Source: Cliona cf. orientalis
Taxonomy: Eukaryota; Porifera; Demospongiae; Clionaida; Clionaidae
Direction of reading: 5' to 3'
Assembly (NCBI GenBank): GCA_963930775.1
Contig: OZ005698.1
Span: 8,500,501-8,564,500, forward strand
Length of the DNA: 64,000 nucleotides
The notes under the pieces were generated by a model. It was not told the DNA's origin. It searched no databases and saw only the letters and a list, made by a program, of their open reading frames with translations. A program made the translations under genes and the position numbers. Positions 2,618 through 56,108 of the stretch are shown here, piece by piece (the first letter of the stretch is position 1; the number at the start of each line of letters is the position of its first letter).

Positions 2618-4609
2618 ATGAAGTTCTCTATGCTCCTTTCATCTCTGCTCAGTTTACTGAGCTTAGCAAAGAGTGAGCCAATTCTCATTATTGCATTGCC
2701 TCAAAGTGATCGTACTGAAGTGTCAGCTAGCTGGGAGAGAGGGGAAGAGATCCTGCCTGGGGCTCTTGCAGCAACTGATGAAGCAAAAAAAAATTCTTCA
2801 AATTTCACAGTTATTGAAGTCACCAGTAGTCCAGTAACTAGCTACGGTCTTTCTTATTCAGGAAATGTGCTGGAAGTAATTGCTAATCTCGCCTGGCAAA
2901 ACAGAACTTCTGATATCATAGGTATTGCTGGAGTGTTTCATCCCAACGTCCTGGCCGTTCTAAATAGATTTCAGCGGCCTATAGTCTCTCTCATTCACTT
3001 CAATAGAATCCCACTAAGTTCCATACACTACACTACAGCATCTGTATCGACACTCACAGACTCAATCATAGCATTCTTGAAAGAATTACACCTGAGAAAA
3101 ATTGGAATAATTACCGAGCTCAAGCAACCATATTTAGCGGTTTCCAATGAATTCAGCACCAAATCTAACGTAAGGCTGCACCATGAATATCATGGGCATC
3201 ACACGTCAGTGTCAGACTCCATTGAAGGAATTTTTGTGTCCAACGCTCATGTCATTCTCCTAAGTGTGAGTCCCTCTGCCGCCATACCACTCCTATGTGA
3301 GGCCTACAAAAGAGGACTGACATGGCCAAAGTATGCTTGGATTTTACATAGCTACAGGTTGGACGATTTGCTACAACGAAGTTTAATATCAAATGAAAGA
3401 TGCAGAATGCATAGAATTTTGGAGGGAATTTTCATCTTTCAGCTGACTAAGGAGCCAGAGGGTAGCAGTTTCGATTCGGGTGCTACACATCACAAGTTTA
3501 GTGGTGTTGAACATAATCCCTACTCTTACCTTCTCTATGAATCAGTCCAGGCATTGATTTCATCAGTGGATACCAGATCAATTTCTGACTTCAATAAAGC
3601 ACCCTCATTATTCTGTTCCAAATCAGGTAATTCCACAGTTTATGTTTATCACAATTTGGACAGCACGACCAGACTTATTGGAGTTTATGATGGCACATCA
3701 AGTATTTTAATAAATACAGGTGAGACCATATTCACTGACTATGATCTTCCTGTTGTGAATAGAGCAGCAATTCTTTTTCCATACCTGCTTCCATTGCCCA
3801 TCCTGTGTATTATTTTCAACACCATATTGCTTGCTCTTTACATCATTTTCCGTAACGAATCAAGTATCAAGTCCACTAGTGTCTCAATTAGCATGCTAAT
3901 GTTTATTGGATGCTATATTCTGATTGGCTATAGTTTTTTCTTGATAGTAGGTGAGCTACATGTATACCAACTTGATTTTTGTATGGTCCATGTCTGGCTG
4001 AGTGGTGTTGGACTGTCCTCACCACTTATTCTTGCTATCATTCTACTGAAAATGCTTCGAGTGTATCGTATTTTTACTGCTTACAAAATATTAAAGCAAA
4101 GCACACACTTATCGGATTTTGCCCTCTTAGTCTATACTATAATCATCTTATCACCCAACATCATTTTACTGATACTATGGACAGCAATTGATGCACGATA
4201 CAGAGTTGACAATTTCATAGAACATCCCGGATACATTGAGAACGTGATAATCTGCCATCCCAGCAACTATGATTCCACTTGGTTTGCACTAGCATTTATT
4301 TACCTATTTCTGCTATCAGTAGCTGTTGTCATTGTTGCTATCAAATCGAGGAATATTCGACTCGCTCGATTCAAGGACACGAAAAAGGTCAATATTCTTA
4401 TCTTCCTTCAATACATTGTTGGATATTTTATGTTTTTTTATTGGAGAATTCTTTGGGATTCAGAACTCAGTATTCTTTCATTATTCATCCTCTATGCTGG
4501 TCATTTGCTCATGGCTTTTCTTTGTCAGACTATTTTGTTTGTGCCAAAGATATGGCCTGCAGTCCAAAAGATAATTATACACCATGACTGCAAGTACAGA
4601 GGACATTAA
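2618..4609 (+). CDS. GABA-B-like class C GPCR, receptor 1 (intact)
   Basis: Single-exon receptor of 663 residues. A signal peptide (1-19, MKFSMLLSSLLSLLSL) is followed by a Venus-flytrap (periplasmic-binding-protein type) ectodomain to about 375, then seven hydrophobic segments at roughly 380-403, 421-445, 458-479, 500-523, 554-575, 591-612 and 620-646. There is no cysteine-rich linker, as in GABA-B receptors and unlike mGluR or CaSR types. Class C marks include KMLRVYRIFTAYK in IL2, a basic IL3 with FKDTKKVN, VPKIW at the end of TM7, and a cysteine pair (about 453 at the top of TM3, about 546 in ECL2). The tail is only ~17 residues, without the coiled coil of vertebrate GABA-B subunits. The start is fixed by the signal peptide and the conserved CTGCATC-ATG context. 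A poly(A) signal AATAAA is at 4776. The ligand is unknown; surface signalling through G proteins is expected from the family. Confidence 0.92.
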   Translation: MKFSMLLSSLLSLLSLAKSEPILIIALPQSDRTEVSASWERGEEILPGALAATDEAKKNSSNFTVIEVTSSPVTSYGLSYSGNVLEVIANLAWQNRTSDIIGIAGVFHPNVLAVLNRFQRPIVSLIHFNRIPLSSIHYTTASVSTLTDSIIAFLKELHLRKIGIITELKQPYLAVSNEFSTKSNVRLHHEYHGHHTSVSDSIEGIFVSNAHVILLSVSPSAAIPLLCEAYKRGLTWPKYAWILHSYRLDDLLQRSLISNERCRMHRILEGIFIFQLTKEPEGSSFDSGATHHKFSGVEHNPYSYLLYESVQALISSVDTRSISDFNKAPSLFCSKSGNSTVYVYHNLDSTTRLIGVYDGTSSILINTGETIFTDYDLPVVNRAAILFPYLLPLPILCIIFNTILLALYIIFRNESSIKSTSVSISMLMFIGCYILIGYSFFLIVGELHVYQLDFCMVHVWLSGVGLSSPLILAIILLKMLRVYRIFTAYKILKQSTHLSDFALLVYTIIILSPNIILLILWTAIDARYRVDNFIEHPGYIENVIICHPSNYDSTWFALAFIYLFLLSVAVVIVAIKSRNIRLARFKDTKKVNILIFLQYIVGYFMFFYWRILWDSELSILSLFILYAGHLLMAFLCQTILFVPKIWPAVQKIIIHHDCKYRGH

Positions 4610-4850
4610 TTTTGTAATCAAGTTTTATTTTGACATTGCATTGAAGTTTGAAACTTGACATATACATGGAGTCTTTATAGATTTGAAGGTGTATCTAAGA
4701 TTCTTTCATATTCCATAATTATTATTAGACATTCCATAGGGATTCTTTATCTGTTGTTGACCCTATACTTTCCTTAATAAACTGTATTCATTTATTTATA
4801 CACCATCCCTGTACTTCATTATGTAATATGGGACAAATGTAACTCTGTAG

Positions 4851-5134
4851 TAGCTACCTACCTGATTCATAATGAACTCTATTAAATTTTATGATCATTA
4901 TTTTGCACCATTGTACAGACCCATATTATAATATTATTATATATAGTATCAAGTAGTACTCCCATGTTGAAAGCACAATAAATTCTCAACAATCTCTTCC
5001 TCAAACAGTTATGACGCAATCAATGGAAATAATATACAAGTATTTTAATACTTGCTATGATCATAATATGACAGTAACATTCATAAATCTTGGCTGCATG
5101 TTATTCCCAAACCAGCAGTCTGCTTATCTGCATC
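4851..5134 (+). promoter_or_regulatory. Upstream cassette of decayed receptor copy
   Basis: The TAGCTACCTACCTGATTCAT landmark is at 4851-4870 and the AGTATCAAGTAGTACTCCC landmark is near 4947. The cassette is complete although the gene behind it is a deletion pseudogene. Confidence 0.5.
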
Positions 5135-6232: not shown

Positions 6233-8218
6233 ATGAAGTTCTCTCTGCTCCTTTCATCTCTGCTCAGTTTACTGAGCTTAGCAAAGAGTGAGCCAATTCT
6301 CATTATTGCATTGCCTCAAAGTGATCATACTAAAGTGCCAGCTAGCTGGGAGAGAGGGGAAGAAATTCTACCTGGGGTTCTTGCAGCAATTGATGAAGTA
6401 AAAAATAATTCTTCAAATTTCACAGTTATTGAAGTTACCAGTGGTCCAGTAACTAGCTACGGTCTTTCTTATTCAGGAAATGTGCTGAAAGTAATTGCTA
6501 ATCTCGCCTGGCAGAACAGAATTTCTGACATCATAGGTATTGCTGGAGTGTTTCATCCCAACATCCTGGCCGTTCTAAATAGATTTCAGCGGCCTATAGT
6601 CTCTCTCGTTCACTTCAACAAAATCCCACTAAATTCCATACACTACACAACAGCATCTGTATCGACACTCACAGACTCAATCATAGCATTCCTGAAAGAA
6701 TTACACCCGAGAAAAATTGGAATAATTACCGAGCTCAAGCAACCATATTTAGTGGTTTCCAATGAATTCAGCACCAAGTCTAACGTAAGGCTGCACCATG
6801 AATATCATGGGCATCACACATCAGTGTCAGACTCCATTGAAGGAATTTTTGTGTCCAATGCTCATGTCATTCTCCTAAGTGTGAGTCCCTCTGCCGCCAT
6901 ACCACTCCTATGTGAGGCCTACAAAAGAGGACTGACATGGCCAAAGTATGCTTGGATTTTACATAGCTACAGGTTGGATGATTTGCTACGACAAAGTTCA
7001 ATATCAAGTGAAGGATGCAGAGTGCACAGAATTTTGGAAGGCATTTTCATCTTTCAGCTGACTAAGGAACCTGAGGGTGGCAGTTTCAATTTGGGTGCTA
7101 CACATCACAAGTTCAGTGGTGTTGAGCATAATCCCTACTCTTACCTTCTCTATGAATCAGTCCAGGCATTGATTTCATCAGCGGATACTAGACCAGTTTC
7201 CGACTTTAACGAAGCATCGTCACTATTCTGTTCCAAATCAGGCAATTCCACAGTTTATATTTATCACAATTTGGATAGCACAACCAGACTTATTGGCATT
7301 TACAATGGCATATCAAGTACCTTAACAAACATGAGTGAGACCATATTCACTGACTATGATCTTCCCATTGTCAATAAATCAGCTCTTCTCTTTCCGTACC
7401 TGCTTCCATTGCCCATCCTGAGCTTCATTTTTAATACCATATTACTTATTCTTTATATCATTTTCCATAACGAACCAAGTATCAAGTCCACTAGTGTCTC
7501 AATTAGCATGTTAATACTCTTAGGATGCTATATTCCGATTGGCTATATTTTTTTCTTGATAGTAAGTGAGCTATACAAGCTTGATTTTTGCATGGTGCGT
7601 ATCTGGCTCAGTGGCACTGGACTCTCTATACCACTTATTCTTGCTACTATTCTAGTGAAAATGCTTCGAGTGTATCGCATTTTTACAGCTCACAAAATTC
7701 TAAGGCAAAGCGCACACTCATCAGATGTTGCCCTCTTGGTCTATACTATACTCATCTTATCACCCAACATCATTTTGCTGATGCTATGGACGGCAATTGA
7801 TCCACGATACAGAGTTGAAAATTTCATAGAACATCCCGGATACATTGAGAATGTGATAATCTGCCATCACAGTGACTATGAGCTCACTTGGTATGTACTG
7901 GCATTTGTTTACTTATTTCTGCTATCAGTAGCTGTTGTCGTTGTTGCTATCAAATCGAGGAATATTCGATTCGCTCAATTCAAGGACACGAAAAAGGTCA
8001 ACTTGCTTATCTTCCTCCTCTACATTGCTGGTTTTTATACATTTTCTTATTGGCAAATTCTTTTGCAATCAGGATTTATTATTCTTTCTAATATCATCCT
8101 CTATGTTGGGCATATTCTCATAGCTTTTCTTTGTCAGATTATTTTGTTTGTGCCAAAGATATGGCCTGCAGTCCAAAAGAAAATCATACACTGTGACTGC
8201 AAGCACGGAGGACATTAA
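6233..8218 (+). CDS. GABA-B-like class C GPCR, receptor 2 (intact)
   Basis: Uninterrupted 661-residue frame with the same layout as the 2618 gene: signal peptide, flytrap ectodomain, 7TM, ~17-residue tail. The ectodomain differs from the 2618 copy at relatively few positions, for example LHPRKIG and the HHTSVSDSIEGIF form of a variable loop. The membrane half is more divergent: TM1 begins NKSALLFPYLLPLPILSFIF, TM2 is MLILLGCYIPIGYIFF, ECL1 is shorter (VSELYKLDFC), and TM6-7 reads LLYIAGFYTFSYWQILLQSG. The TM3/ECL2 cysteine pair and the RVYRIFTAH motif are kept. A candidate AATAAA is at 8391. Ligand unknown. Confidence 0.92.
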   Translation: MKFSLLLSSLLSLLSLAKSEPILIIALPQSDHTKVPASWERGEEILPGVLAAIDEVKNNSSNFTVIEVTSGPVTSYGLSYSGNVLKVIANLAWQNRISDIIGIAGVFHPNILAVLNRFQRPIVSLVHFNKIPLNSIHYTTASVSTLTDSIIAFLKELHPRKIGIITELKQPYLVVSNEFSTKSNVRLHHEYHGHHTSVSDSIEGIFVSNAHVILLSVSPSAAIPLLCEAYKRGLTWPKYAWILHSYRLDDLLRQSSISSEGCRVHRILEGIFIFQLTKEPEGGSFNLGATHHKFSGVEHNPYSYLLYESVQALISSADTRPVSDFNEASSLFCSKSGNSTVYIYHNLDSTTRLIGIYNGISSTLTNMSETIFTDYDLPIVNKSALLFPYLLPLPILSFIFNTILLILYIIFHNEPSIKSTSVSISMLILLGCYIPIGYIFFLIVSELYKLDFCMVRIWLSGTGLSIPLILATILVKMLRVYRIFTAHKILRQSAHSSDVALLVYTILILSPNIILLMLWTAIDPRYRVENFIEHPGYIENVIICHHSDYELTWYVLAFVYLFLLSVAVVVVAIKSRNIRFAQFKDTKKVNLLIFLLYIAGFYTFSYWQILLQSGFIILSNIILYVGHILIAFLCQIILFVPKIWPAVQKKIIHCDCKHGGH

Positions 8219-11246: not shown

Positions 11247-13195
11247 ATGAATTCGAAGTTCTCTCTGCTCCTTTCGTCTCTGCTCAGTTTACTGAGCTTA
11301 TCAAAGAGTGAGCCAATTCTCATTATTGCATTGCCTCAAAGTGGTCATACTGAAGTGTCAGCTAGCTGGGAGAGGAGGGAAGAAATTCTACCTGGGGCTC
11401 TTGCAGCAATTGATGAAGCAAAAAGCAATTCTTCAAATTTCACAGTTATTGAAGTTACCAGTGGTCCAGTAACTAACTACGGTCTTTCTTATTCAGGAAA
11501 GGTGCTGGAAGTAATTGCTAATCTCACCTGGCAGAACAGAACTTCTGACATCATAGGTATTGCTGGAGTGTTTCATCACAACATTCTGGCCATTCTAAAT
11601 AGATTTCAGCGGCCTATAGTCTCTCTCATTCACTTCAACAAAATCCCACTAAGTTCCATACACTACACAACAGCATCTGTATCGACACTCACAGACTCAA
11701 TCATAGCATTCTTGAAAGAAGTACACCCGAGAAAAATTGGAGTAATTACCGAGCTCAAGCAACCATATTTAGCTGTTTCCAATGAATTCAGCGCCAAGTC
11801 TAACATAAGGCTGCACCATGAATATCATGGGCATCACAGTGCATCATTTTCGGATACCATTGATTCAGAAGGAATTTTTGTGTCCAACGCTCATGTCATT
11901 CTCCTAAGTGTGAGTCCCTCTGCCGCCATACCACTCCTATGTGAGGCCTACAAAAGAGGACTGACATGGCCAAAGTACGCTTGGATTTTACATAGCTACA
12001 GGTTGGACGATTTGCTACGACAAAGTTCAATATCAAATGAAAGATGCAGAATGCATAGAATTTTGGAGGGAATTTTCATCTTTCAGCTGACTAAGGAGCC
12101 AGAGGGTAGCAGTTTCGATTCAGGTGCTACACATCACAAGTTTAGTGGTGTTGAACATAATCCCTACTCTTACCTTCTCTATGAATCAGTCCAAGCGTTG
12201 ATTTCATCAATGGATACTAGATCAGTTTCTGATTTCAACAAAGTGCCCTCATTATTCCGTTCCAAATCAGGTGATTCCACAGTTTATATTTATCATAATT
12301 TGGACAGCGCAATCAGACTTATTGGAGTTTATGATGGCACACCAAGTATTTTAATAAACATGAGTGATACCATATTCACTGACTATGATCTTCCCATTGT
12401 CAATAAATCAGCACTTCTCTTTCCTTACCTGCTTCCATTGTCCATCCTGAGCTTCATTTTCAACACCATATTGCTTATTCTTTATACCATTTTCCACAAT
12501 GAACCAAGTATCAAGTCCACTAGTGTCTCAATCAGCATGCTAATATTTATTGGATGCTATATTCTGATTGGCTATAATATTTTACTGCCAGTGTACCAAT
12601 TTGATTTCTGTATGACTCTTATCTGGCTGAGTGGTATTGGGCTATCTATGCCACTTATTCTTGCTACCATTCTAGTGAAAATGCTTCGAGTGTATCGCAT
12701 TTTTACAGCTTACAAACTTCTAAGGCAAAGCACACACTTATCAGATGTTGCCCTCTTGGTCTATACTATACTCATCTTATCACCCAACATCATTTGGCTG
12801 ACACTATGGACAGCAATCGATCCAGATTACAGAATTAACAATTCCATAGAACATCCTGGATACATTGAAAATGTGGTAGCCTGCCATCGCAGCAATTATA
12901 AGGTCATTTGGTATGCACTAGCATTTACTTATCTATTTCTGCGAGGAATATTCGACTCACTCGATTCAAGGACACAAAAAAGGTCAATATTTTTATCTTC
13001 CTCCTTTGCATTGTCGGTCTTTGTACATTTTCTTATTGGCAAGCTTTTTTGGAATCAGGATTCGCTTACATCATCCTCTATGCTGGTCACATGCTCACAG
13101 CTTTTCTTTGTCAGATTATTTTGTTTGTGCCAAAGATATGGCCTGCAATACAAAAGAAAATTATACACTGTGACTGCAAGCACGGAGGACATTAA
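11247..13195 (+). pseudogene. Receptor 4, frameshifted in TM5 by a 34-bp deletion
   Basis: The frame is open from ATG 11247 (MNSKFSLLL, signal peptide) through the ectodomain and TM1-4. Near 12942 a 34-bp stretch of TM5/IL3 is missing (CTATTTCTGC runs straight into GAGGAATATTCG), which removes VAVVIVAIKS and shifts the frame. Translation would continue in the wrong frame to a stop at 13202 with no TM6-7. The correct-frame continuation (ARNIRLTRFKDTKKVN to the CKHGGH tail) is still intact to 13195, so the deletion is young. The ectodomain carries the HHSASFSDTI loop variant plus an extra DSE. A truncated five-TM product cannot be excluded but is unlikely to signal. Confidence 0.88.
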
Positions 13196-13443
13196 TAAAT
13201 AATTATTGTGTAATCAAGTTTTATTTTGACATTGCATGTCATCATTGAAGTTTGAAATTTGACATATTATACATGGAGTGTTTGTAGATTCGAGGGTGCA
13301 TCTAAGATTCTTAAAGTTTCATATTATTTCATAATTATTATTATACATACCATAGGAATTCCTTATCTCTACATATCTTAATTATCCTATACACCATCCA
13401 TGTACTTCATTATTCCATAATTGTTTTACGAATAACTCTGTAG

Positions 13444-14748: not shown

Positions 14749-15172
14749 TCCAATGACTTTCACGTGATGCTTGCATGTATAAGTTTATAAATGCTAGACA
14801 AAAATATTGATTTCATGTATGTAGGAAATGTGTAGGATAGGGCAAAATTTTCTATATATTTCATACAAAAATCCTGTCCTATTCTTTGATAAACATGTGT
14901 AGGAAAGCTCATGTTTTGGTAAGCACAACATAAGGAAATCTTAATTTTAGTCCAGTGCTTAATTATTAGAGTTTATCGTGCTTCTTTTTAGCATGCATGG
15001 ATATAGTATCAGGAGCACATACTATCTTTGCTTGGGAATAAATCAAATAATCATGCAATCAACGGAATTTTAACGAGCATTGTAGCAAATAACATTTAGT
15101 CCCGATAGTTGTAGTTTGTAAAATCTTGGTTGTTGTTCTCGAACCATCAGACTGAGTCTGTTGATCTGCATC
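14749..15172. other. Non-homologous spacer before receptor 6
   Basis: This sequence replaces the end of the preceding pseudogene and most of the usual upstream cassette. I do not see the TAGCTACCTACCTG landmark; only weak similarity to the last ~170 bp of the cassette (TATAGTATCAGGAGCAC, CAATCAACGGAA, TTGATCTGCATC) remains. No coding potential recognised. Confidence 0.6.
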
Positions 15173-17145
15173 ATGAAATTTTCTAGAACTCTGCTTCTTT
15201 CGTCTCTGCTCAGTTTACTGAGCTTATCAAAGAGTGAGCCAATTATCATTATTGCATTGCCTCAAAGTGATCATACTGAAGTGTCAACCAGCTGGGAGAG
15301 AGGGGAAGAAATTCTACCTGGGGCTCTTGCAGCAATTGATGAAGCAAAAAGCAATTCACAGTTATTGAAGTTACCAGTGGTCCAGTAACTAGCTACGGTC
15401 TTTCTTATTCAGGAAATGTGCTGGAAGTAATTGCTAGTCTCGCCTGGCAGAACAGAATTTCTGACATCATAGGTATTACTGGAGTGTTTCATCCCAACAT
15501 TCTGGCCGTTCTAAATAGATTTCAGCGGCCTATAGTCTCTCTCGTTCACTTTAACAAAATCCCACTAAATTCTATACACTACACTACAGCATCTGTATCG
15601 ACACTCACGGACTCAATCATAGCATTCTTGAAAGAATTACACCCAAGAAAAATTGGAATAATTACTGAGCTCAAGCAACCATATTTAGTGGTTTCCAATG
15701 AATTCATCACCAAGTCTAACGTAAGGCTGCACCATGAATATCATGGGCATCACACGTCAGTGTCAGACTCCATTGAAGGAATTTTTGTGTCCAATACTCA
15801 TGTTATTCTCCTAAGTGTGAGTCCCTCTGCTGCCATACCACTCCTATGTGAGGCCTACAAAAGAGGACTGACATGGCCAAAGTATGCTTGGATTTTACAT
15901 AGCTACAGGTTGGATGATTTGCTACGACAAAGTTCAATATCAAGTGAAGGATGCAGAGTGCACAGAATTTTGGAAGGAATTTTCATCTTTCAGCTGACTA
16001 AGGAGCCAGAGGGTAGCAGTTTCGATTCGGCTGATCACAAGTTTAGTGGTGTTGAACATAATCCCTACTCTTACCTTCTCTATGAATCAGTCCAGGCATT
16101 GATTTCATCAGTGGATACTAGACCAGTTTCTGACTTCAACAAGGCACCCTCATTATTCCGTTCCAAATCAGGTGATTCCACAGTTTATGTTTATCACAAT
16201 TTGAACAGCACAACCAGACTTATTGGCATTTATAATGGCACATCAAGTATCTTAACAAACATGAGTGAGACCATATTCACTGACTATGATCTTCCCATGA
16301 TGAATAAAACAACGATTCTCATTCCTTACCTGCTTCCATTGCCCATCCTGAGCTTCATTCTCAACACCATATTGCTTGTTCTTTACGTCATTTTCCGTAA
16401 CGAACCAAGTATCAAGTCCACTAGTGTCTCAATTAGCATGCTAATATTTATTGGATGCTATGTTCTAATTGGTTATAGTATTTCCTTGATAGCTGGTAAA
16501 AAAGATCTATACAAACTTGATCTTTGCATGGTCTATGTCTGGCTGGGTGGTATTGGGCTATCTATGCCACTTATTCTTGCTACTATTCTAGTGAAAATGC
16601 TTCGAGTGTATCGCATTTTTACATCCTTCAAATTTCTAAAGAAAAGTGCACACTTATCAGATTTTGCCCTCTTGGTCTATACTATACTCATCTTATCACC
16701 CCACATCATTTTACTGATACTATGGACTGCAACCAATCCAGCGTACAGAGTTGAAATTTTCACTGAACATCCCGGATACATTGAGAAAGTGGTAACCTGC
16801 CACACTGGTGAATATGACCTCATTTGGTATGTACTAGCATTTATTTACCTGATTCTGCTTTCAGAAGCTGTTATCATTGTTGCTATCAAATCGAGGAATA
16901 TTCGACTTGCTCGATTCAAGGATACAAAAACGGTCAACATTTTTATCTTTCTCATCAGTATATTTGGCAAATGTACATTTATTTATTGGCAAGTTCTTTC
17001 GTTTTTAGAATCTTCTTTCATCATCCTTTTTGCTGGTCATATGATCATAGCTTTTCTTTGTCAGATTATTTTATTTATGCCAAAGATATGGACAACACTC
17101 CAAAAGAAAACCATATACCATGACTGCAAGCACGGAGGACATTAA
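15173..17145 (+). pseudogene. Receptor 6, frameshifted by a 10-bp deletion near its start
   Basis: ATG 15173 opens a slightly altered signal peptide (MKFSRTLLLSSLLSLLSLSK). After about 60 residues a 10-bp deletion near 15356 (AGCAATTCACAG where other copies have TTCAAATTTC inserted) breaks the frame. From about 15395 the remaining ~580 residues are open and well conserved through TM7 and the CKHGGH tail. This copy has the most divergent membrane half: ECL1 GKKDLYKLDLC, IL2 FTSFKFLKKS, TM6 FLISIFGKCTFIYWQVL. It also lacks a full upstream cassette. The long intact 3' frame suggests recent inactivation, or a deletion allele or assembly artefact. Confidence 0.85.
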
Positions 17146-17622: not shown

Positions 17623-19602
17623 ATGAAGTTCTCTCTGCTTCTTTCATCTCTGCTCAGTTTACTGAGCTTATCAAAGAGTGAGCCAATTCTCATTATTGCA
17701 TTGCCTCAAAGTGATCATACTGAAGTGTCAGCAAGCTGGGAGAGGGGGGAAGAGATCCTGCCTGGGGCTCTTGCAGCAATTGATGAAGCAAAAAATAATT
17801 CTTCAAATTTCACTGTTATTGAAGTTACCAGTGGTCCAGTAACTAGCTACGGTCTTTCTTATTCAGGAAATGTGCTGGAAGTAATTGCTAGTCTCGCATG
17901 GCAGAACAGAATTTCCGACATCATAGGTACTGCTGGAGTGTTTAATCCCAAGATGCTGGCCGTTCTAAATAGATTTCAGCGGCCTATAGTCTCTCTCATT
18001 TGCTTCAGCAAAGTCAAATCTAATGATATTGTACAATACACAACAGCATCTGTATCGATACTTACAGACTCAATCATAGCATTCTTGAAAGAAGTACACC
18101 CGAGAAAAATTGGAATTATTACCGAGCTCAAGCAACCATATTTAGCAGTTTCAATTGAATTCAGCGCCAAATCTAATGTAAGGCTGCACCATGAATATCA
18201 TGGGCATCACACGTCAGTGTCAGACTCCATTGAAGAAATTTTTGCGTCCAATGCTCATGTCATTCTCCTAAGTGTGAGTCCCTCTGCCGCCATACCACTC
18301 CTATGTGAGGCCTACAAAAGAGGACTGACATGGCCAAAGTATGCTTGGATTTTACATAGCTACAGGTTGGACGATTTGCTACGAGGTTCAATATCAAATG
18401 AAGGATGCAGAGTACAGACAATCTTGGAAGGAATTTTCATCTTTCAGCTGACTAAGGAGCCTGGTGGTGGCAGTTTTGATTCGGGTGCTACACATCACAA
18501 GTTTAGTGGTGTTGAGTATAATCCCTACTCTTACCTTCTCTATGAGTCAGTCCAGGCATTGATTTTATCAGCAGATACTAGACCAGTTTTCGATTTTAAT
18601 AAAGCACCCACACTATTCCATTCCAAATCAGGTGATTCCACAGTTTATGTTTATCACAATTTGAACAGCACAACCAGACTTATTGGCATTTACAATGGCA
18701 TATCAAGTACCTTAACAAACATGAGTGAGACTATTTTCACTGACTATGATCTTCCCATTGTCAATAAATCAGCTCTTCTCTTTCCTTACCTGGTTCCATT
18801 GCCCATCCTGAGCTTCATTTTCAACACCATATTGCTTATTCTTTATGTCATTTTCCGTAACGAACCAAGTATCAAGTCCACTAGTGTTTCAATCAGCATG
18901 CTAATATTTATTGGATGCTATATTCTGATTGGCTATAGTATTTTACTGCCAGTGTACCAACTTGATTTCTGTAATACTCTCATCTGGCTGAGTGGTATTG
19001 GGCTGTCTATACCACTTATTCTTGCTACAATTCTACTGAAAATGCTTCGAGTGTATCGCATTTTTACAGCTTATAAAATTTTAAAGCAAAGCACAATGTT
19101 GTCAGATATTGCCCTCTTGGTCTATACTATACTCATCTTATCACCCAACATCATTTTGCTGATACTATGGACGGCAATTGATCCACGATACAGAGTTGAC
19201 AGTTTCATAGAACATCCCGGATACATTGAGAATGTGATAGTCTGCCATCCTGGTGACTATGAACCCACATGGCTTGCACTAGCATTTGCTTATATATTTC
19301 TGCTATCAGTAGCTGTTGTCGTTGTTGCTATCAAATCGAGGAATATTCTACTTGCTCGATTCAAGGACACGAAAAAGGTCAATATTCTTATCTTCCTTCT
19401 ATATATTGTTGGATATTTTATGTTTTCTTATTGGAGAATTCTTTGGGATTCAGAATTATTCAGTATTTTTTCTTTTATCATCCTCTATATTGGTCATATA
19501 CTCATGGCTTTTCTATGTCAGATTATTTTATTTGTGCCAAAGATATGGCCAGCAATACAAAAGAAAATCATACACCGTGACTGCAAGTACAGAGGACACT
19601 AA
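17623..19602 (+). CDS. GABA-B-like class C GPCR, receptor 7 (intact)
   Basis: Uninterrupted 659-residue frame: signal peptide, flytrap ectodomain, seven TM segments, short tail ending CKYRGH. A distinctive ectodomain patch, LICFSKVKSNDIVQYTTAS, replaces the HFNKIPLNSIHYTTAS of the others close to the expected inter-lobe face. ECL1 is short (ILLPVYQLDFCNT), as in the broken 11247 copy, while TM6-7 (YIVGYFMFSYWRILWDSELFSIFSF) resembles the 2618 and 25754 copies, an example of mosaicism. The TM3 and ECL2 cysteines and RVYRIFTAYK are preserved. Ligand unknown. Confidence 0.92.
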   Translation: MKFSLLLSSLLSLLSLSKSEPILIIALPQSDHTEVSASWERGEEILPGALAAIDEAKNNSSNFTVIEVTSGPVTSYGLSYSGNVLEVIASLAWQNRISDIIGTAGVFNPKMLAVLNRFQRPIVSLICFSKVKSNDIVQYTTASVSILTDSIIAFLKEVHPRKIGIITELKQPYLAVSIEFSAKSNVRLHHEYHGHHTSVSDSIEEIFASNAHVILLSVSPSAAIPLLCEAYKRGLTWPKYAWILHSYRLDDLLRGSISNEGCRVQTILEGIFIFQLTKEPGGGSFDSGATHHKFSGVEYNPYSYLLYESVQALILSADTRPVFDFNKAPTLFHSKSGDSTVYVYHNLNSTTRLIGIYNGISSTLTNMSETIFTDYDLPIVNKSALLFPYLVPLPILSFIFNTILLILYVIFRNEPSIKSTSVSISMLIFIGCYILIGYSILLPVYQLDFCNTLIWLSGIGLSIPLILATILLKMLRVYRIFTAYKILKQSTMLSDIALLVYTILILSPNIILLILWTAIDPRYRVDSFIEHPGYIENVIVCHPGDYEPTWLALAFAYIFLLSVAVVVVAIKSRNILLARFKDTKKVNILIFLLYIVGYFMFSYWRILWDSELFSIFSFIILYIGHILMAFLCQIILFVPKIWPAIQKKIIHRDCKYRGH

Positions 19603-19875: not shown

Positions 19876-20539
19876 GTAGTGATTGGCTCTATAGTACTTT
19901 CTTGATTGTTAGTGACCTTTACCAACTTGACTTTTGTATGACTCTCATCTGGCTGAGTGGTAATGGGCTGTCCAAGGCTATACCACTTATTCATGCTACC
20001 ATTCTAGTGAAAATGCTTTGAGTGTATCGAATTTTTACAGCTCATAAAATATTAAAGCAAAGCACACACTTATCAGATATTTCCCTCTTGGTCTATACTA
20101 TACTCATTTTATCACCCAACATCATTTTGCTGATACTATGGACGGCAATTGATCCAGAGTACCAAGTTGATAGTTTCATAGAACATCCCGGATACATCGA
20201 GAATGTGATAATCTGCCATCATAATAAATATGGTATGCACTAGCATTTGTTTACCTATTTCTACTATCAGTAGCTGTGTCATTGTTGCTATCAAATCGAG
20301 GAATATTCGACTCGCTCGATTCAAGGACACGAAAAAGGTCAACATTCTATATATTGTTGGATATTTTCTTATTGGAGAATTTTTTTGGGATTCAGAATTA
20401 TTCAGTATTCTCTCTTTTATCATCCTCTATGTTGGTCATAATAATTATTATACTCTTTGTCAGATTATTTTGTTTGTGCCAAAGATATGGCCAGCAATAC
20501 AAAGAAAATCATACACTGTGACTGCAAGTACTGAGGAGA
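19876..20539 (+). pseudogene. Receptor 8, promoter fused to a decayed 3' half
   Basis: The upstream landmark CTGTAGTAG at about 19873 runs directly into TM2 sequence (GATTGGCTCTATAG), so the deletion took the rest of the promoter, the whole ectodomain and TM1. What follows matches TM2-TM7 but has a TGA in place of the conserved arginine of RVYRIF (about 20019), several short indels in TM5-7 and a degraded end (ACTGAGGAGATTAA). No product is expected. Confidence 0.9.
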
Positions 20540-20703
20540 TTAATTCAATTTATATTTAGTGCGACTTAGTTTTGAATTAGTCCCAAGACATGTGTATTAC
20601 AGATACAACATACAGTAGTTAACCCAGCCTCGGAATGTTGTATCTTCAGTTGGCATAAACTGAGACTTGCATGTTTGTATAATATTTACTATATACACTG
20701 CAG

Positions 20704-23564
20704 CAATCAAAGTTTTCTGTTGAAGTTGTCGGACGATGCCGCCCGCACTCTCCCTCCCGACTGCCAAGAGCCTCTCAGCTCCATCGATGTGCCAAAGCTG
20801 ACGATAGCCGTCTACCCGAGGCACGTAGCTGAAGACATGGCAGCACATGTGTCACTGCCTCTCAAGGAACTCAAACTAACAGTAGGTATCATCGCACCAA
20901 ACTTCCTTCTTGTTTTACTACCAAAACATTACATTTCCTCACGATATCAGTAGCTAGAACATGAGATCATAGGGCAAAATTTAACATGAAAAAAGTTTGC
21001 TCAATCCCATAGATTTCCTACATGTACGAGATCCAAATTTGCATGTAGCTATAGCTTTGATCTACACGAAGCCATAATGGTAATTACTCGGCCATTATTA
21101 ATTGTAATAATAATAATAATTATACACCCCAAGCACACCAGGCCCACTGTGATGCAATAATCAATTTTGGTTGGTCCATGTGCAGCATCTGGATTTGAGG
21201 AGATACCCGTATTTCAGGGCTGATCTTGTGTCCATTTTATTGTATTACTACTATCCTTTGATAGGAAAATTCCACTGTGATTGTACCTCCCGACACGACG
21301 GCTGAGGAATTCAACCTAAACTGGGAAGAGATCAGTTCCTCAGTGAATGCATTTCCAGTAGAGTATGCCCTCACGGCACAAGGGGAGGAGTTGGACACAC
21401 CCCTTCTGCCGATGGTCTGCCACAGGATCAAAGTGCAAAGGTGAGCACTATTAATAGTGACTTTCGTATCAATTTAAACTTGTCACTATTATATTATTTC
21501 AGACACAAAATTATGCACAGTGGAACAGATGCAATGCCTTGGAAAGAGTATGTAAAGAAATTAAATATAAGCAGGCCCTACCCCTCCCCCTCCCTCCCAC
21601 CACTCATTAAAATTATTAATAGAAAATCTCAACTAGTTAGCTATAATTCAATGTATTATTCCTCAGATTACTTTTGGAACTTGGTTACAAGCTAGTCCCC
21701 GATACCCAATCTCGTGCCGTATCAGTCATCTACCTAGACGACTACTCAGTTGCCATGGGAACGGAGGAGGGCGGGGATGGTGAACCCGAGGAGGAGGCGG
21801 CTGGTCTCACTCAAGAGCAATTGGCAGAGCTCACGATGAAACATGCCGAGGAGATGCAGAAATTACAGAAAGAATATGAGTGAGTCAATTACGATTCCAG
21901 CCACATTAAACTTTGTTAGTAAATTTGATGCCAAAATTAATGTTATTGTGTATTAGTTTCATCCCACAATTGAAAACATTGGAATGGCCTGGGGTGATCT
22001 TATTATAGTGTTGTGTTCTGTGTTGTGTGTGTCTGTGTACAGGAGCAGGCTGGAGTCTCTGTCCAAAACACTGAAGCGGGTGAAAACAGAATCCTCCCGA
22101 GAAATCGAGGTGCTAGAACAAGGTACATGCATTAATAAGCCTTCCATTCTCCATCATTCTCAATAATTATGCCATGTGACTTCTACTATACACACGTGCA
22201 CTGTAGCTCTCCAGGAAGCAGAAAAGCAAAAGGTAACTTTTACCAATAGAATTGGGAATAGTACTGTGACCTTAAACGTTTACTGCATGCAGGGAAAGAA
22301 AGCCAGAAGCATCGCTGAGATGAGAAATGTTCTAGCTCGTAAGAAACAGAAGATCACACATGGTCTGCCAGAGTGGGGAAAAGATCTACCTGAAGACGTA
22401 GGCACTGAAATAGAATTAAATATGGTTCAATGACAACCATAATTTTAATACATGCATCCGGGGGTTATTTTGCAGTTTTTTGAGCGACTGGAGGTATTCG
22501 CTTACGAGAGTGTCAAGAAACAAGAAGAATTCACTGAAAGAATCAAACGAGAGGTACTAAAGACTCCAGTATTATTAATTATGGCTAGCTACTACCATAA
22601 TTATAATATTATTATTCAGAGGAAATTTTGTGTTCTATGAAAATTCTCCAGGTCAGTGAAGCATGTGAGAAGCAGTTAGCAACTCAGCACAAACTGGCAC
22701 CAGGACTGAGGAAGGACATTGACACGACTACTGAAGGTTGGTTCATCTTGACACACTCGTGGTAAATCTTTACTAGCTTTCATGATAATTTTTGTGACTT
22801 TCGTACTGACAGACGTTACTCTACCAGCCCTTTTCATGCCCACCTCCTGTACAAAGAACCTCGTCTACACACCGAGGGCACATCGATACTTCCATCCACC
22901 CGGCTCCAACGAGACCAGGATAACACAACCACCGGCAGTCTTCAAACTACCAACACTCCACACTGGCGTATCCTCCTTCACTTATGCACCCCTCATACTG
23001 TATAGCGTGAAATTTTCGAGGGAGAAAACTTTCACGAATTTCGCGATTTTTCAGCCATCCGCGAAAGTTTTCTCCACGAAATTCTAGACATGCCACACCC
23101 ATTATGCGACCAATTTTAACATTCCGCGAAAGTTTTCTCTGCAAAATGCTCCTTTCCTACCGATCCGCGAAAGTTTTCTCCCTCAAAAATTCCCGCTATA
23201 TGGTACTTCTTTTAGCTCACTCCACACACACACACACAACACTGTGATTCCTTCATGCATGAAAATCTGCATTAATATAATTATTATCGGCAGTTATTAT
23301 TCCTCAGCTAGTACTTTTTCACAGAATATGGGAACTCTGAACCTATTTGAGCTGAGTCAGCAGTTTAGCCGATCCGGTCCGCAGTGGCTGAAGGAGCACC
23401 AGCACCAGTCCCCTCGCTACACCCCTGCCCCGCCCCCCAGCGCCTGTGGCTTCTACCATCAACAGCAGCCAGCCCGCATCAGCTCCACCGGCTCCTCCTC
23501 TAACGATATTCACGGCATCTCTGTCTATGCAAGCCAAGAAGCTGCCACTAGAACTAAGCAATAG
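20704..23564 (+). CDS. Unrecognised coiled-coil protein, copy A
   Basis: Eleven exons with consistent phases: 20704-20881, 21265-21440, 21503-21547, 21667-21879, 22043-22122, 22207-22232, 22293-22397, 22476-22553, 22652-22736, 22813-22967, 23325-23564. The predicted protein has a globular N-terminal half (LTIAVYPRHVAEDM; NSTVIVPPDTTAEEF; LELGYKLVPDTQSR), an acidic stretch, a coiled coil in exons 4-7 (LTMKHAEEMQKLQKEYESRLESL; split here by an intron), a basic segment (RSIAEMRNVLARKKQKI), then a Pro/Tyr-rich tail. I do not recognise the family. Exon 1 is entered in phase 2 and has no upstream in-frame ATG. Either a 5' exon is missing or lies outside, or translation starts at the internal ATG at about 20836. 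The terminal exon boundary at 22967 is less certain than the others. Confidence 0.65.
22996..23205. mobile_element. Tc1/mariner-like MITE in intron 10 of copy A
   Basis: A 210-bp element whose ends are inverted repeats (CTGTATAGCGTGAAATTTTC left; reverse complement of the right end CCATATAGCGGGAATTTTTG) flanked by TA on both sides. The arms continue into repeated GAGAAAACTTTCGCG units. The orthologous position in the duplicate gene (about 31196-31200) lacks it, giving a direct filled/empty comparison. No coding capacity, so non-autonomous. Confidence 0.75.
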
Positions 23565-24391
23565 TAAGAGGAGTGACTCACTATCAAAACTGTTCACTAG
23601 TATACGTAACTGTAACACAATACATAATATTACGTAGCTAAATTCCTAGCATGATTATTATTATTATTATGTATTGTTATAATACTATGTTACCATAGAG
23701 ATTTCCAATTAAAAGCAGCATGATATTGCTAGATATCACTATTTACTTGTTGTGCATATTGTGCATAGGAATTTCTAAGGGTAATTTTTACAACTAACTG
23801 CTAATTTATCCCGAAATTAATAGGCAGAAATTTGCCACCAAAGTTACAACTGTAGATTACAGCATACAGTACCGTAGATTCTATCTGTTGTTGCATACAT
23901 ATTATGCATGCACATGTAGCTTAACTAATAACTAGCTCATCCCAGGATTACTGCAAAATAATTTTCTTATTTCTGGATTTTAAAAACGACTACAAACGAC
24001 AAAATTAATTAAATTTACATTATCTGTCTGTATGCTGTGATCCATGGATGTGAGAGGTGATTACAGGGGGAGGGGCCATGACATGTGATGATGTCATTCG
24101 TGAACATGAATGTGCTGACTGATCAATTATTCAAAGCTAGGCGAGAAATAGTTCATGTACCGAAACTAAATTTTTTCTATGGTCTCCGTAATCCTCTTGT
24201 AATGATTGAATTGCTTCATTCTCCTGTAAGAAAAAAAATTAATAAGCTGATCATGTGACATCATTATTTTTACAGACAGAAACATTACTTCAGCACTCTT
24301 GATAGTAATGGGCTAATAATGGGCTACACCCCTTTATTCCTACCATAACTACACAATGCATACAGTATATCACGAATATCTTGTGCTAAAA

Positions 24392-24617
24392 CAAGGACAC
24401 GAAAAAGGTCAATATTCTTATCTTCCTTCTATACATTGTTAGTTATTTTATGTTATCTTATTGGCAAGTTCTTTTGCAATCAGGATTCATTATTCTTCCT
24501 TATATCATCCTCTATGTTGGTCATATGCTCATGGCTTTTCTTTGTCAGATTATTTTGTTTGTGCCAAAGATATGGCCAGCAATACGAAAGAAAATTATAC
24601 ACCGTAACTGCAATTAA
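24392..24617 (+). pseudogene. 3' stub of a class C GPCR, second copy
   Basis: Duplicate of the stub at 1269-1493: IL3 end, TM6, TM7 and VPKIWPAI, then a stop at 24615-24617. It is joined at its left to the same KIAA0319-like remnant. A few substitutions separate the two copies. Confidence 0.85.
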
Positions 24618-24813
24618 TTTTGTATTCAAGTTTTATTATGACATTGCATGCAATCATGACATATACATGGAGTCTTTGTAGATTCGAGGCTGTTTCACAT
24701 TATGTAAGGTCAAAATTCTCCCATTATTTTGTACATCTTGTTTAATTTCTGGTTTGTGTGTCTTCCTGTCTGTGGTATAGTGTATTAGTTATTCAGTTCA
24801 GAGTCAGTGCTGG

Positions 24814-25150
24814 TGTAGTCTCGTGCCCAGCCCCCTTCGCTTCATGCATGCACGAGAAAGGGTCTGGTCAAAGGGTCACACTAACACGTCCAGCTGGAAT
24901 GCAATGATTGGCAATTCCAGTGTGCGTACAATAGAAACTAACCGCCACTTCCATACCATGTGCATATAGACCGAGCGCATGCACATACGTACAGACCACA
25001 CATAATTACATCCCACTAATGTCATGTGATCATGGTTCTGCAACCTGATTGGGCCGCAATATATATATGTACCTCGAGGACAAGGAAGTGCGACCCTTTT
25101 GACCAGACCCTTTCTCGCGCGTGCATGAAGGGGGCTGGGCATGAGCCTAG
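24814..25150. mobile_element. Inverted-repeat element, family A, second copy
   Basis: Copy of the element at 1690-2024, carried along by the block duplication. Left arm TAGTCTCGTGCCCAGCCCCC near 24818; right arm reverse-complementary near 25100-25145. Differences are point changes and a TATATATG expansion near 25061. Confidence 0.7.
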
Positions 25151-25483
25151 TGCTGGTGTGTCTTATTGCAGTGTGGTACGTGTCATTTCCCTACCATCTC
25201 TCTCTCTCTATGTATCTCGTATGTGTATAATGCTGCTACTTGAATAATACTATTAATATCTAAATATCCTGTGAAGCGGCATTAAAGGTGGCAAAACGTT
25301 ACACATATTATTATTTCATAATAATATTGTACATTCCATAGGGATTCCTTATCTGTTGTTGTCCCTACGTTTCTTAATCAACTGTATTCATTTTATCCTA
25401 TACATCATCCCCGTACTTCATTATTCCATAGTGTTTTTAAGATTGTTTATAATATTGGTTTTATGGGACACATAACTCTGTAG

Positions 25484-25753
25484 TAGCTACCTACCTGATT
25501 CATAAAAATAATTCCATTTATGATCAGTATTTTGCACCATTGCGCAGACCCATATTAATATAATAATATTACAGTATCAAGTAGTACTCCCATGTTGAAA
25601 GTGCAATAAAATTCCTTTTCCATGAACAAGTCAAATAGCTACCGGTAGTTACAATGCAATCAACAGAAATTTACAAGTACTATATGAAAACAATAACATT
25701 TTGCTTGTAAAAATTTTGGCTACTATTCCCAAACCAGCAATCTGATCTGCATC
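25484..25753 (+). promoter_or_regulatory. Upstream cassette of receptor 10
   Basis: TAGCTACCTACCTGATTCAT is at 25484-25503 and AGTATCAAGTAGTACTCCC near 25574. The spacing to the ATG is almost the same as for the 2618 gene, its duplication partner. Confidence 0.5.
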
Positions 25754-27748
25754 ATGAAATTCTCTCTGCTCCTTTCGTCTCTGCTCAGTTTACTGAGCTT
25801 AGCAAAGAGTGAGCCAATTCTTATTATTGCATTGCCTCAAAGTGATCATACTGAAGTGTCAGCCAGCTGGGAGAGAGGGGAAGAGATCCTGCCTGGGGCT
25901 CTAGCAGCAATTGATGAAGCAAAAAAAATTAATAATTCTTCAAATTTCACAGTTATTGAAGTTACCAGTGGTACAGTAACTAGCTATGGTCTTTCTTATT
26001 CAGGAAATGTGTTGGAAGTAATTGCTAATCTCACCTGGCAGAACAGAATTTCCGACATCATAGGTATTGCTGGAGTGTTTCATCCCAATGTTCTGGCCGT
26101 TCTAAATAGATTTCATCGGCCTATAGTCTCTCTCGTTCACTTCAACAAAACTCCACTCAATTCCATACACTACACAACAGCATCTGTATTGACACTCACA
26201 GACTCAATCATAGCATTCTTGAAAGAAGTACATCCTAGAAAAATTGGAATAATTACTGAGCTCAAGCAACCATATGTAGCAGTTTCAAATGAATTCAGCA
26301 CCAAGTCTAACGTAAGGCTGCACCATGAATATCATGGGCATCACAGTGCATCATTTTCGGACACCATTGAAGGAATTTTTGTGTCCAATGCTCATGTCAT
26401 TCTCCTAAGTGTGAGTCCCTCTGCTGCCATACCACTCCTATGTGAGGCCTACAAAAGGGGACTGACATGGCCAAAGTATGCTTGGATTTTATATAGCTAC
26501 AGGTTGGACGATTTGCTACGACGGAGCTCAATATCAAATAAAGGATGTAGAATGCGTAGAATTTTGGAGGGAATTTTCATCTTTCAGCTGACTAAGGAGC
26601 CTGGTGGTGGCAATTTCAATTCGGGTGCTACACATCACAAGTTTAGTGGTGTTGAGCATAATCCCTACTCTTACCTTCTCTATGAATCAGTCCAGGCATT
26701 GATTTCATCAGCGGATACTAGATCAGTTTTCGACTTCAATGAAGCACCCTCACTATTCCGTTCCAAATCAGGTGATTCCATAGTTTATGTTTATCACAGT
26801 TTGGACAGCACAATCAGACTTATTGGAGTTTATGATGGCACATCAAGCATTTTAATAAATGTAAGTGATACCATATTCACCGACTATGATCTTCCCGTTG
26901 TGAATAGAAAAGCAATTCTTTTTTCTTACCTCCTTCCATTTCCCATTTTGAGCTGCATTTTCAACACCATATTGCTTGTTCTTTATATCATTTTCCATAA
27001 TGAACCAAGTATCAAGTCCACTAGTGTCTCAATTAGCATGCTAATGCTCATTGGATGCTATATTCTGATTGGCTATAGCTTTTTCTTGGTAGTAGGTGCA
27101 CTATACAAACTTGATCTTTGCAAGGTGTATATCTGGCTGAGTGGTATTGGGCTGTCCATACCACTTATTCTTGCTACCCTTCTAGTGAAAATGCTTCGAG
27201 TGTATCGCATTTTTACAGTTTACAAATTTCTAAAGCAAAGCACACACTTATCAGATGTAGCCCTCTTAGTCTATACTATACTCATCTTATCACCCAACAT
27301 CATTTTGCTGATACTATGGACAGCAATTGATCCAGGATACAGGGTTGATAATTTCATAGAACATCCCGGATACATTGAGAATGTGATGATCTGCAATCAG
27401 AGCAACTATGAGCTCACTTGGTATGCACTAGCATTTGTTTACTTACTTCTGCTATCAGTAGCTGTTGTCATTGTTGCTATTAAATCGAGGAATATTCGAC
27501 TCGCTCGATTCAAGGACACGAAAAAGGTTAATATTTTTATCTTCCTTATATATATTGTTGGATATTTTATGTTTTCTTATTGGAGAATTCTTTGGGATTC
27601 AGAATTCCATATTCTTTCATTAATCATCCTTTATGTTGGTCATATGCTCATGGCTTTTCTATGTCAGATTATTTTGTTTGTGCCAAAGATATGGCCTGCA
27701 GTCCAAAAGAAAATCATGCACCATCACTGCAAGCACAGAGGACATTAA
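25754..27748 (+). CDS. GABA-B-like class C GPCR, receptor 10 (intact)
   Basis: Uninterrupted 664-residue frame with signal peptide, flytrap ectodomain and 7TM. It carries an extra KI before NNSSNFT and the HHSASFSDTIEGIF loop variant, shared with the 8728 and 11247 copies rather than with its block-duplication partner at 2618. TM1-2 (NRKAILFSYLLPFPILSCIF; MLMLIGCYILIGYSFFLVV) and ECL1 (GALYKLDLCKV) are distinct. TM3/ECL2 cysteines, RVYRIFTVYK and VPKIWPAVQKK are kept. It is separated from the rest of the array by coiled-coil copy A and followed by copy B. Ligand unknown. Confidence 0.92.
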   Translation: MKFSLLLSSLLSLLSLAKSEPILIIALPQSDHTEVSASWERGEEILPGALAAIDEAKKINNSSNFTVIEVTSGTVTSYGLSYSGNVLEVIANLTWQNRISDIIGIAGVFHPNVLAVLNRFHRPIVSLVHFNKTPLNSIHYTTASVLTLTDSIIAFLKEVHPRKIGIITELKQPYVAVSNEFSTKSNVRLHHEYHGHHSASFSDTIEGIFVSNAHVILLSVSPSAAIPLLCEAYKRGLTWPKYAWILYSYRLDDLLRRSSISNKGCRMRRILEGIFIFQLTKEPGGGNFNSGATHHKFSGVEHNPYSYLLYESVQALISSADTRSVFDFNEAPSLFRSKSGDSIVYVYHSLDSTIRLIGVYDGTSSILINVSDTIFTDYDLPVVNRKAILFSYLLPFPILSCIFNTILLVLYIIFHNEPSIKSTSVSISMLMLIGCYILIGYSFFLVVGALYKLDLCKVYIWLSGIGLSIPLILATLLVKMLRVYRIFTVYKFLKQSTHLSDVALLVYTILILSPNIILLILWTAIDPGYRVDNFIEHPGYIENVMICNQSNYELTWYALAFVYLLLLSVAVVIVAIKSRNIRLARFKDTKKVNIFIFLIYIVGYFMFSYWRILWDSEFHILSLIILYVGHMLMAFLCQIILFVPKIWPAVQKKIMHHHCKHRGH

Positions 27749-40611: not shown

Positions 40612-56108
<15,497 letters not shown>

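What the first reader, a model, noticed from the sequence alone, without database searches (positions are those of the whole stretch)
2618..27748. Tandem array of single-exon GABA-B-like receptors with mixed intact and dying members
At least twelve receptor-derived loci lie on one strand in 27 kb: four intact, three broken by small indels, three heavily decayed and two stubs. Intronless coding, co-duplicated promoters, high paralogue similarity and rapid birth-and-death recall chemoreceptor clusters, but with class C flytrap receptors lacking a cysteine-rich domain and with ~17-residue tails. A lineage-specific environmental-sensing repertoire is a reasonable hypothesis.
Basis: partly seen in the sequence, partly recalled or inferred. 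Interest (0 to 1): 0.78.

Follow-up and report, generated by a model that had tools for sequence, protein, structure and literature searches.

The report
Mosaic sponge GABA-B-like receptor gene array
A boring sponge carries a crowded row of near-duplicate cell-surface receptor genes, some apparently working and some broken, that have swapped pieces with one another; big receptor families like this are already known in sponges, but the piece-swapping is a useful added detail.

Summary
All 12 loci in the window are real: 4 intact, 3 frameshifted, 3 decayed, 2 stubs. The array runs on 19.5 kb upstream of the window, giving 17 loci (9 intact) over 47 kb on one strand. Contig lengths point to the demosponge Cliona cf. 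orientalis, chromosome 10, a HiFi/Hi-C assembly. Each intact gene is one open frame: leader, divergent flytrap-like ectodomain, class C 7TM nearest human GABA-B subunit 2, no detectable cysteine-rich domain, short tail. The GABA contacts that can be aligned are not kept; several GB2 G-protein contacts are. Expansion of such receptors is published for sponges (Ephydatia >120), so the kind is known. Added here: the copies are recombinant mosaics. Nearby-site incompatibility is far below permutation (p<=0.001) and 0 of 40 recombination-free simulations reach p<0.05. Pseudogenes share 95-98% windows with intact genes. Genes W1 and W5 have 98% identical upstream DNA but dS 0.165 in their coding sequence. 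dN/dS is about equal in flytrap (0.41-0.43) and 7TM (0.43), so the ligand domain shows no overall diversifying signature. Environmental sensing remains plausible but untested.

The parts
1269..1487 (+). 3'-end stub (equivalent of residues 581-654)
   Evidence: tblastn, 77% identity; 99-100% identical partner at 24393-24611
2618..4609 (+). intact receptor W1, 663 aa
   Evidence: single open frame; 7tm_3 77.9 bits
5198..5724 (+). decayed copy with internal deletions
   Evidence: pieces 20-119, 450-499, 632-659 in three frames
6233..8218 (+). intact receptor W2, 661 aa
   Evidence: single open frame; 7tm_3 85.3 bits
8728..10725 (+). frameshifted near-full-length pseudogene P3
   Evidence: pieces in two frames (three HSPs) cover residues 2-659
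11247..13202 (+). pseudogene P4: long ORF (651 aa) with a frameshift near residue 564, so the usual C-terminus is lost
13691..14754 (+). truncated, frameshifted pseudogene P5 (residues 2-352 only)
15162..17145 (+). frameshifted pseudogene P6 (7TM half still open)
17623..19602 (+). intact receptor W4, 659 aa
   Evidence: single open frame; 7tm_3 77.9 bits
19905..20537 (+). 3' fragment with lesions, at the left edge of the duplicated segment
24393..24611 (+). 3'-end stub, duplicate of 1269-1487
25754..27748 (+). intact receptor W5, 664 aa
   Evidence: single open frame; 7tm_3 81.3 bits
525..2617 (.). spacer upstream of W1, 98.0% identical over 2087 aligned bp to the spacer upstream of W5 (first 1400 aligned bp 99.1%)
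19880..27751 (.). right copy of an ~8 kb segmental duplication whose left copy is window -4002 to 4612
   Evidence: adjacent HSPs of 3923 bp at 93% and 4113 bp at 94%

Best explanation
This is a tandem array of single-open-frame, GABA-B-like class C G-protein-coupled receptors, most likely of the demosponge Cliona cf. orientalis (17 loci, 9 intact). Shown from sequence: the array grows by DNA-level duplication of gene plus flank, including one ~8 kb segmental copy that accounts for W5 and for at least one stub; copies on other chromosomes carry array flanking DNA and pieces of neighbour genes; the coding regions, pseudogenes included, bear the marks of recombination with one another, so that each gene is a patchwork; intact copies are under purifying selection. 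Inferred: gene conversion, perhaps with unequal crossing-over, is the exchange process. Inferred: each protein reaches the surface by its leader, binds a small molecule other than GABA (or GABA in a different way) in its flytrap, and signals through a GB2-type 7TM to G proteins, acting as a receptor for external or self-made amino-acid-like cues in a nerveless animal.
For: Family: 7tm_3 above cut-off in 7 of 8 proteins scanned, all 5 long ORFs among them; best solved-structure match GABA-B subunit 2, E 2e-14, then mGlu6 1e-8 and GB1 2e-6; the ectodomain-only profile also ranks GB2 first (0.0017), and ANF_receptor is hit at E<=1 by 15 of 15 members, best 9.6e-8, above its cut-off in the C1:4.26 Mb relative (30.2 bits against 25.4). 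Coupling: GB2 contact residues K513, R577, I581, F582, K586 and D594 align with K418, R476, I480, F481, K485 and D495 of W4 (alignment; residue list from passages of PMC12499500). Selection: mean pairwise dN/dS 0.41-0.43 in flytrap and 7TM. Recombination: near-site incompatibility 0.348 against 0.478 +/- 0.009 permuted (13 sequences) and 0.241 against 0.458 +/- 0.011 (8 of the 9 intact genes, U2 left out), with 0 of 40 tree simulations at p<0.05; 8 of 78 pairs at the permutation floor for longest shared run, and the nearest paralogue changes from window to window. W1/W5: flank 98% identical but dS 0.165; of 170 differing coding sites 128 have both variants in other copies and 42 carry a private variant, about 2% of the gene, like the spacer. 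Dispersed copies: the C1 copy has intergenic DNA and neighbour pieces on both sides, the C5 copy downstream plus about 170 bp upstream.
Against: No expression, protein or ligand data. Structure prediction failed (mean pLDDT 33.9), so the flytrap fold rests on weak sequence matches: ANF_receptor for W4 and W5 is below the cut-off. In the coupling surface L686 of GB2 is F here, K510 is P, K590 is Q. The ~220-bp stub 1269-1487 has nine other homologous copies yet is 99-100% identical to its partner, so having templates nearby does not always bring divergence. The gene fragment 19905-20537 is no closer to U5 (83.4%), its partner by position, than to W4 (83.9%) or U2 (83.6%). Conversion and repeated unequal crossing-over were not separated. 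The high spacer identity could itself be a recent conversion tract on an older duplication.
Confidence: 0.82

Rival explanations
1. An odorant-receptor-like environmental chemoreceptor repertoire in which ligand-binding domains diversify under positive selection.
For: Tandem birth and death, many paralogues, large genome-wide class C set.
Against: dN/dS is about equal in flytrap and 7TM (0.41-0.43), and no 60-codon window averages above 0.58; many ectodomain positions are invariant across 15 members of 39-89% identity to the first. Synonymous divergence is raised together with nonsynonymous in W1/W5, which points to exchange rather than selection. No site-class model was run.
Confidence: 0.3
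2. Internal-signalling receptors: true metabotropic GABA or glutamate receptors that coordinate contraction, expanded for dosage.
For: GABA-B-type 7TM and architecture; sponges respond to GABA and glutamate (PMC10133484, passages); a uniformly constrained ectodomain fits one shared ligand.
Against: Of the GB1 GABA contacts, Y250 aligns with S/G/, H170 with A/V/I, and W278 with an invariant Y; S130, S153 and E349 could not be placed with confidence and W65 was not covered (a weak alignment).
Confidence: 0.25
3. A neutral, decaying duplication hot spot of little function.
For: 8 of 17 loci are broken.
Against: Nine frames of 657-671 codons are intact, with mean dN/dS near 0.4, and related loci elsewhere also have long open frames.
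Confidence: 0.1
4. Assembly artefact: haplotypes or repeats wrongly laid in tandem.
For: The published assembly's primary k-mer completeness is 60.5% and 81 haplotypic duplications were removed by hand, which suggests high heterozygosity; a ~4 kb spacer pair is about 99% identical.
Against: HiFi plus Hi-C, QV 58; array free of N; intact copies differ by 10-35% in protein, more than alleles usually do.
Confidence: 0.05
5. Retrogene origin: intronless copies made by retroposition and scattered.
For: No introns in the coding frames.
Against: Array and the nearest dispersed copies share flanking DNA and parts of neighbouring genes; long single open frames are common across class C genes here, so any retroposition would be ancient. 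Poly-A tails and target-site duplications were not searched for.
Confidence: 0.04

Closest known systems
Expanded metabotropic GABA receptors of sponges (Ephydatia muelleri, PMC7385117; passages read)
   Same: Demosponge, GABA-B-like class C, more than 120 genes, one cluster of over 50; tandem and segmental duplication in that genome.
   Different: A different demosponge; coding mosaicism with pseudogenes measured here; here the spacer of one pair is more alike than the coding sequence, whereas that paper describes duplicated clusters (integrin and E3-ligase examples) alike in coding and variable between genes. The terms 'gene conversion', 'single exon' and 'intronless' have 0 occurrences in its held main text; its supplements were not seen.
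GABA-B-like receptors of Trichoplax and demosponges (PMC10133484; passages read)
   Same: Lineage-specific expansion of metabotropic receptors; 37 GABA-B-like and 34 mGluR-like in Trichoplax; 'dramatic expansion' in demosponges.
   Different: Smaller sets; no array structure or recombination in the passages read.
Human/Drosophila GABA-B subunit 2
   Same: Best match of the 7TM and of the ectodomain; coupling residues K513, R577, I581, F582 kept.
   Different: Ectodomain very divergent; ~19-residue tail in the window members; no evidence either way on a partner subunit.
Amphimedon glutamate-family GPCRs (PMC4302439; passages read)
   Same: Mostly sponge-specific class C receptors.
   Different: 33 receptors reported there, against at least 150 matching places here, some of them pseudogenes.

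Membership tests
Class C GPCR | 7tm_3 domain above Pfam cut-off | tested here: met
   53.3-85.3 bits in the 5 long ORFs, cut-off 33.5
Class C GPCR | Venus-flytrap (ANF_receptor) ectodomain | tested here: inconclusive
   15 of 15 members hit at E<=1, best 9.6e-8; W4 and W5 below cut-off, C1:4.26 Mb relative above it; fold prediction unusable
GABA-B receptor | No cysteine-rich domain between flytrap and 7TM | tested here: met
   no NCD3G at E<=10 in 2 members nor at E<=0.001 in 8 proteins; mGluR-like L002 matches NCD3G weakly
GABA-B receptor | Closest to GABA-B among class C | tested here: met
   GB2 best for 7TM and ectodomain among solved structures
GABA-B receptor | GABA-contact residues of GB1 | tested here: not met
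   3 of 7 contacts assessable: Y250 to S/G, H170 to A/V/I, W278 to Y; S130, S153 and E349 poorly aligned, W65 outside the segment
GABA-B receptor | Long C-terminal tail with coiled coil for GB1/GB2 pairing (recalled) | tested here: not met
   19 residues after the 7tm_3 match in four intact members; others no longer
GABA-B receptor | Orthology to GB1 or GB2 in a tree with other animals | not tested
   the tree holds this genome's sequences only
Diversifying chemoreceptor repertoire | Faster protein change in the ligand domain | tested here: not met
   dN/dS 0.41-0.43 flytrap, 0.43 7TM; no site-class model was run
Diversifying chemoreceptor repertoire | Expression in sensory or surface cells | not testable with these tools
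   no expression data
Gene-conversion (concerted or mosaic) family | Significant intragenic recombination among paralogues | tested here: met
   with simulation control; also in 8 members of the C16/C17 family (no simulation control)

The most novel reading that the evidence does not exclude
The array is a combinatorial receptor generator: gene conversion, with pseudogenes as part of the template store, keeps making chimeric receptors, so an individual sponge's receptor set would be strongly polymorphic and could serve individual- or symbiont-specific recognition rather than a fixed list of odours.
Probability: 0.12. Interest if true: 0.78.

Novelty: new member of a known kind. Interest (0 to 1): 0.48.

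Why it matters
Nerveless animals with large class C receptor sets are used to argue about the origin of neurotransmission. If these genes are shuffled mosaics with one constrained binding domain, gene counts and gene trees overstate how many distinct ligands are sensed, and tree-based orthology within sponges needs recombination-aware methods. The array is also a ready test case: nine intact close paralogues that can be expressed and compared.

Tried and rejected
Structure route: AlphaFold on the four window proteins gave mean pLDDT 33.9; no fold search was made.

18S identification (RF01960) did not complete. The species was found by comparing nine contig lengths with a published table.

A reading of the W1/W5 coding excess as positive selection was rejected because synonymous sites are raised too. 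A simple claim that divergence occurs wherever third copies exist was weakened: positions of the duplicated segment with no third copy nearby differ at 3.4% (945 positions), with at least one at 4.6% (6869), with five or more at 7.8% (3338); Spearman -0.53 over 80 bins; but the stub pair has nine further copies and stays 99-100% identical. The MAFFT placement of GB1 S130 and S153 fell in or near the leader and is not used. A first extraction of loci ignored strand and was redone. In the tree, rows marked as broken and rows under 560 residues were dropped, leaving 24 of 30 loci; the eight mGluR-like loci L001-L008 were not in it. In the longest-run test and the incompatibility tests, U2, P5 and C1_4.26 were left out, leaving 13 of 16 sequences; the incompatibility tests use two-state informative sites only (301 and 236).

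Papers: 0 for sponge + single-exon + GPCR + intronless; 2 for intronless + Porifera + receptor + GPCR (listing only); 9 holding at least 4 of 5 terms of a gene-conversion query (listing only).
Full report
WHAT WAS CHECKED. The window is C10:8500501-8564500 of a 216.8-Mb genome. Nine contig lengths held for that genome (C1 37.495, C2 14.80, C3 11.96, C5 11.46, C6 11.33, C7 9.99, C10 9.79, C16 7.98, C17 7.82 Mb) equal, to the printed digits, the chromosome table of Cliona cf. orientalis odCliOrie1.1 (PMC12639293, passages read). This is an inference from lengths, not from a marker gene; the total and the number of pieces differ (216.8 Mb in 149 contigs here, 217.17 Mb in 307 scaffolds there). 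That assembly is PacBio HiFi with Hi-C, QV 58. The array contains no N; the one N run in the surrounding 154 kb lies about 44 kb upstream of the window.

THE ARRAY. In total there are 17 loci: nine intact frames of 657-671 codons, three frameshifted near-full copies, three decayed copies and two stubs, within 47 kb. None was found to -70 kb or +84 kb. Intact proteins are 65-90% identical to each other; U2 is the outlier at 65-72%.

THE PROTEINS. Each has a hydrophobic leader, about 350 residues of ectodomain and a 7tm_3 domain; 19 residues follow it in the four intact window members. A profile of four members matches GABA-B subunit 2 best among solved-structure sequences (2e-14), then mGlu6 (1e-8), GB1 (2e-6) and CaSR (0.04). 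A profile of 15 ectodomains also ranks GB2 first, at E 0.0017, and ANF_receptor is hit at E<=1 by all 15 (best 9.6e-8), though W4 and W5 stay below the family's cut-off. No cysteine-rich domain is detectable in the members scanned. So 'GABA-B-like' is right as a description of type.

GABA ITSELF IS DOUBTFUL. Contacts for GABA in human GB1 are W65, S130, S153, H170, E349, Y250 and W278, and GB2 coupling residues include K510, K513, R577, I581, F582, K586, K589, K590, K593, D594 and L686 (PMC12499500, passages). In the better aligned part, Y250 corresponds to S or G, H170 to A, V or I, and W278 to an invariant Y (the alignment is weak, hhalign probability 56-65). S130, S153 and E349 could not be placed with confidence and W65 was not in the segment. 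In the 7TM, K513, R577, I581, F582, K586 and D594 align with identical residues, while K510, K590, K593 and L686 do not. Inference: signalling competence is plausible; GABA as the natural ligand is not supported.

SELECTION. Mean pairwise dN/dS among nine intact genes is 0.41 in two parts of the flytrap (0.43 for the whole ectodomain with linker) and 0.43 in the 7TM; the highest 60-codon window is 0.58. The copies are constrained, and the ligand domain is not evolving faster than the rest. This does not exclude a few selected sites; pairwise values also ignore recombination.

HOW THE ARRAY GROWS. The segment -4002 to 4612 recurs at 19880-27751 as two adjacent matches of 93% and 94%. This accounts for W5 as the partner of W1, for the stub 24393-24611 as the partner of the stub 1269-1487, and by position for the fragment 19905-20537 as the truncated left edge, although the fragment's own sequence is no closer to U5 (83.4%) than to W4 (83.9%). 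A close relative on chromosome 1 carries array-type intergenic DNA and pieces of neighbouring receptor genes on both flanks; one on chromosome 5 does so downstream and shares about 170 bp upstream. They therefore moved as DNA segments. In the protein tree the array needs three label changes; U2 sits with genes on C1 and C2 (99/95 support for the pair with C2). Trees are unsafe here because of what follows.

THE COPIES ARE MOSAICS. In 250-nt windows the nearest paralogue of a gene changes repeatedly, mostly at 90-98% identity. W1, for example, is nearest in turn to W5, W2, U4, the pseudogene P4, the pseudogene P3 (three windows) and U5. A related family on C17 and C16 (8 sequences, one of them broken) gives 0.200 against 0.343 +/- 0.017 (without a simulation control). 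In a longest-shared-run test 8 of 78 pairs reach the floor, Bonferroni 0.039.

A NATURAL EXPERIMENT. W1 and W5 share an upstream spacer 98.0% identical over 2087 bp, 99.1% in its first 1400 bp, and the spacer further upstream is 99-100% identical over about 2.4 kb. Yet their coding sequences differ at dS 0.165 and dN 0.070. Of 170 differing coding sites, 128 have both variants in other copies, 42 have one private variant, none has two. The private 2% is like the spacer; the rest looks like shuffled standing variation. Against this, the stub pair 1269/24393 has nine other homologous copies but stays 99-100% identical, and a recent conversion tract covering the spacer is an alternative; both versions need exchange between copies.

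THE WIDER REPERTOIRE. 7tm_3 is matched at 150 places scored out of 413 candidates, all above the cut-off; counted by hand from the table, 126 of 150 lie in stop-to-stop frames of at least 600 codons without internal stop, among them at least one known pseudogene, P6 at 600. ANF_receptor gives 110 places out of 336 candidates, all above the cut-off, including a C3:4.60-4.68 Mb cluster largely missing from the first list, so 150 is a floor for matching places, pseudogenes included. The nearest relatives of the array are at C1:14.05, C5:4.18, C1:4.26, C2:6.13-6.15, C2:10.47 and C17:0.51-0.59 Mb.

COMPARISON WITH PRINT. Ephydatia muelleri has more than 120 metabotropic GABA receptors with one cluster of over 50, and an 'extreme level of duplication' is noted for sponges in general (PMC7385117, passages). 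Placozoans and other demosponges show expansions (PMC10133484, passages). Amphimedon has 33 glutamate-family receptors (PMC4302439, passages). The kind is therefore known. The searches run listed no paper whose title or shown abstract treats mosaic exchange or single-exon structure in these sponge arrays, but most subscription papers and all preprints are outside that library and few of the listed papers were opened.

VERDICT. It is a new member of a known kind, of moderate interest.

Noticed in passing
window 281-543: 129-bp unit repeated twice at 97% in a stretch of about 630 bp (about -105 to 525) that lies in the left copy of the 8-kb duplication and not in the right one.
   Followed up: partly
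window 43087-43332: AG dinucleotide run of about 124 copies.
   Followed up: no
window 56433-57059 and 58686-59555, - strand: Two neighbouring ORFs each with a Surp module (57 bits each), perhaps exons of one splicing-factor gene.
   Followed up: no
window 34485-34967, - strand: ORF with a weak KIAA0319_N match, 27.6 bits against a cut-off of 27.
   Followed up: no
L017:7158-9602, - strand: Single 814-aa frame combining a protein kinase domain with Kelch repeats.
   Followed up: no
L009/L010 and L011/L012 area, window coordinates -61627 to -58595 and -49294 to -45941: Two long ORFs (1010 and 1117 aa) that begin alike, a separate duplicated family near the array.
   Followed up: no
window -568 to -146, 23206-23624, 31204-31629: A ~428-bp repeat found three times; the copy beyond the array matches the other two at 95%.
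   Followed up: no
array leaders: window -11304, -8474, -5329 against 2618, 6233, 17623: Two different leader and upstream types precede nearly the same mature protein; homology between the types begins just inside the coding start, which suggests leader/promoter exchange. The C17 family also has two leader types.
   Followed up: partly
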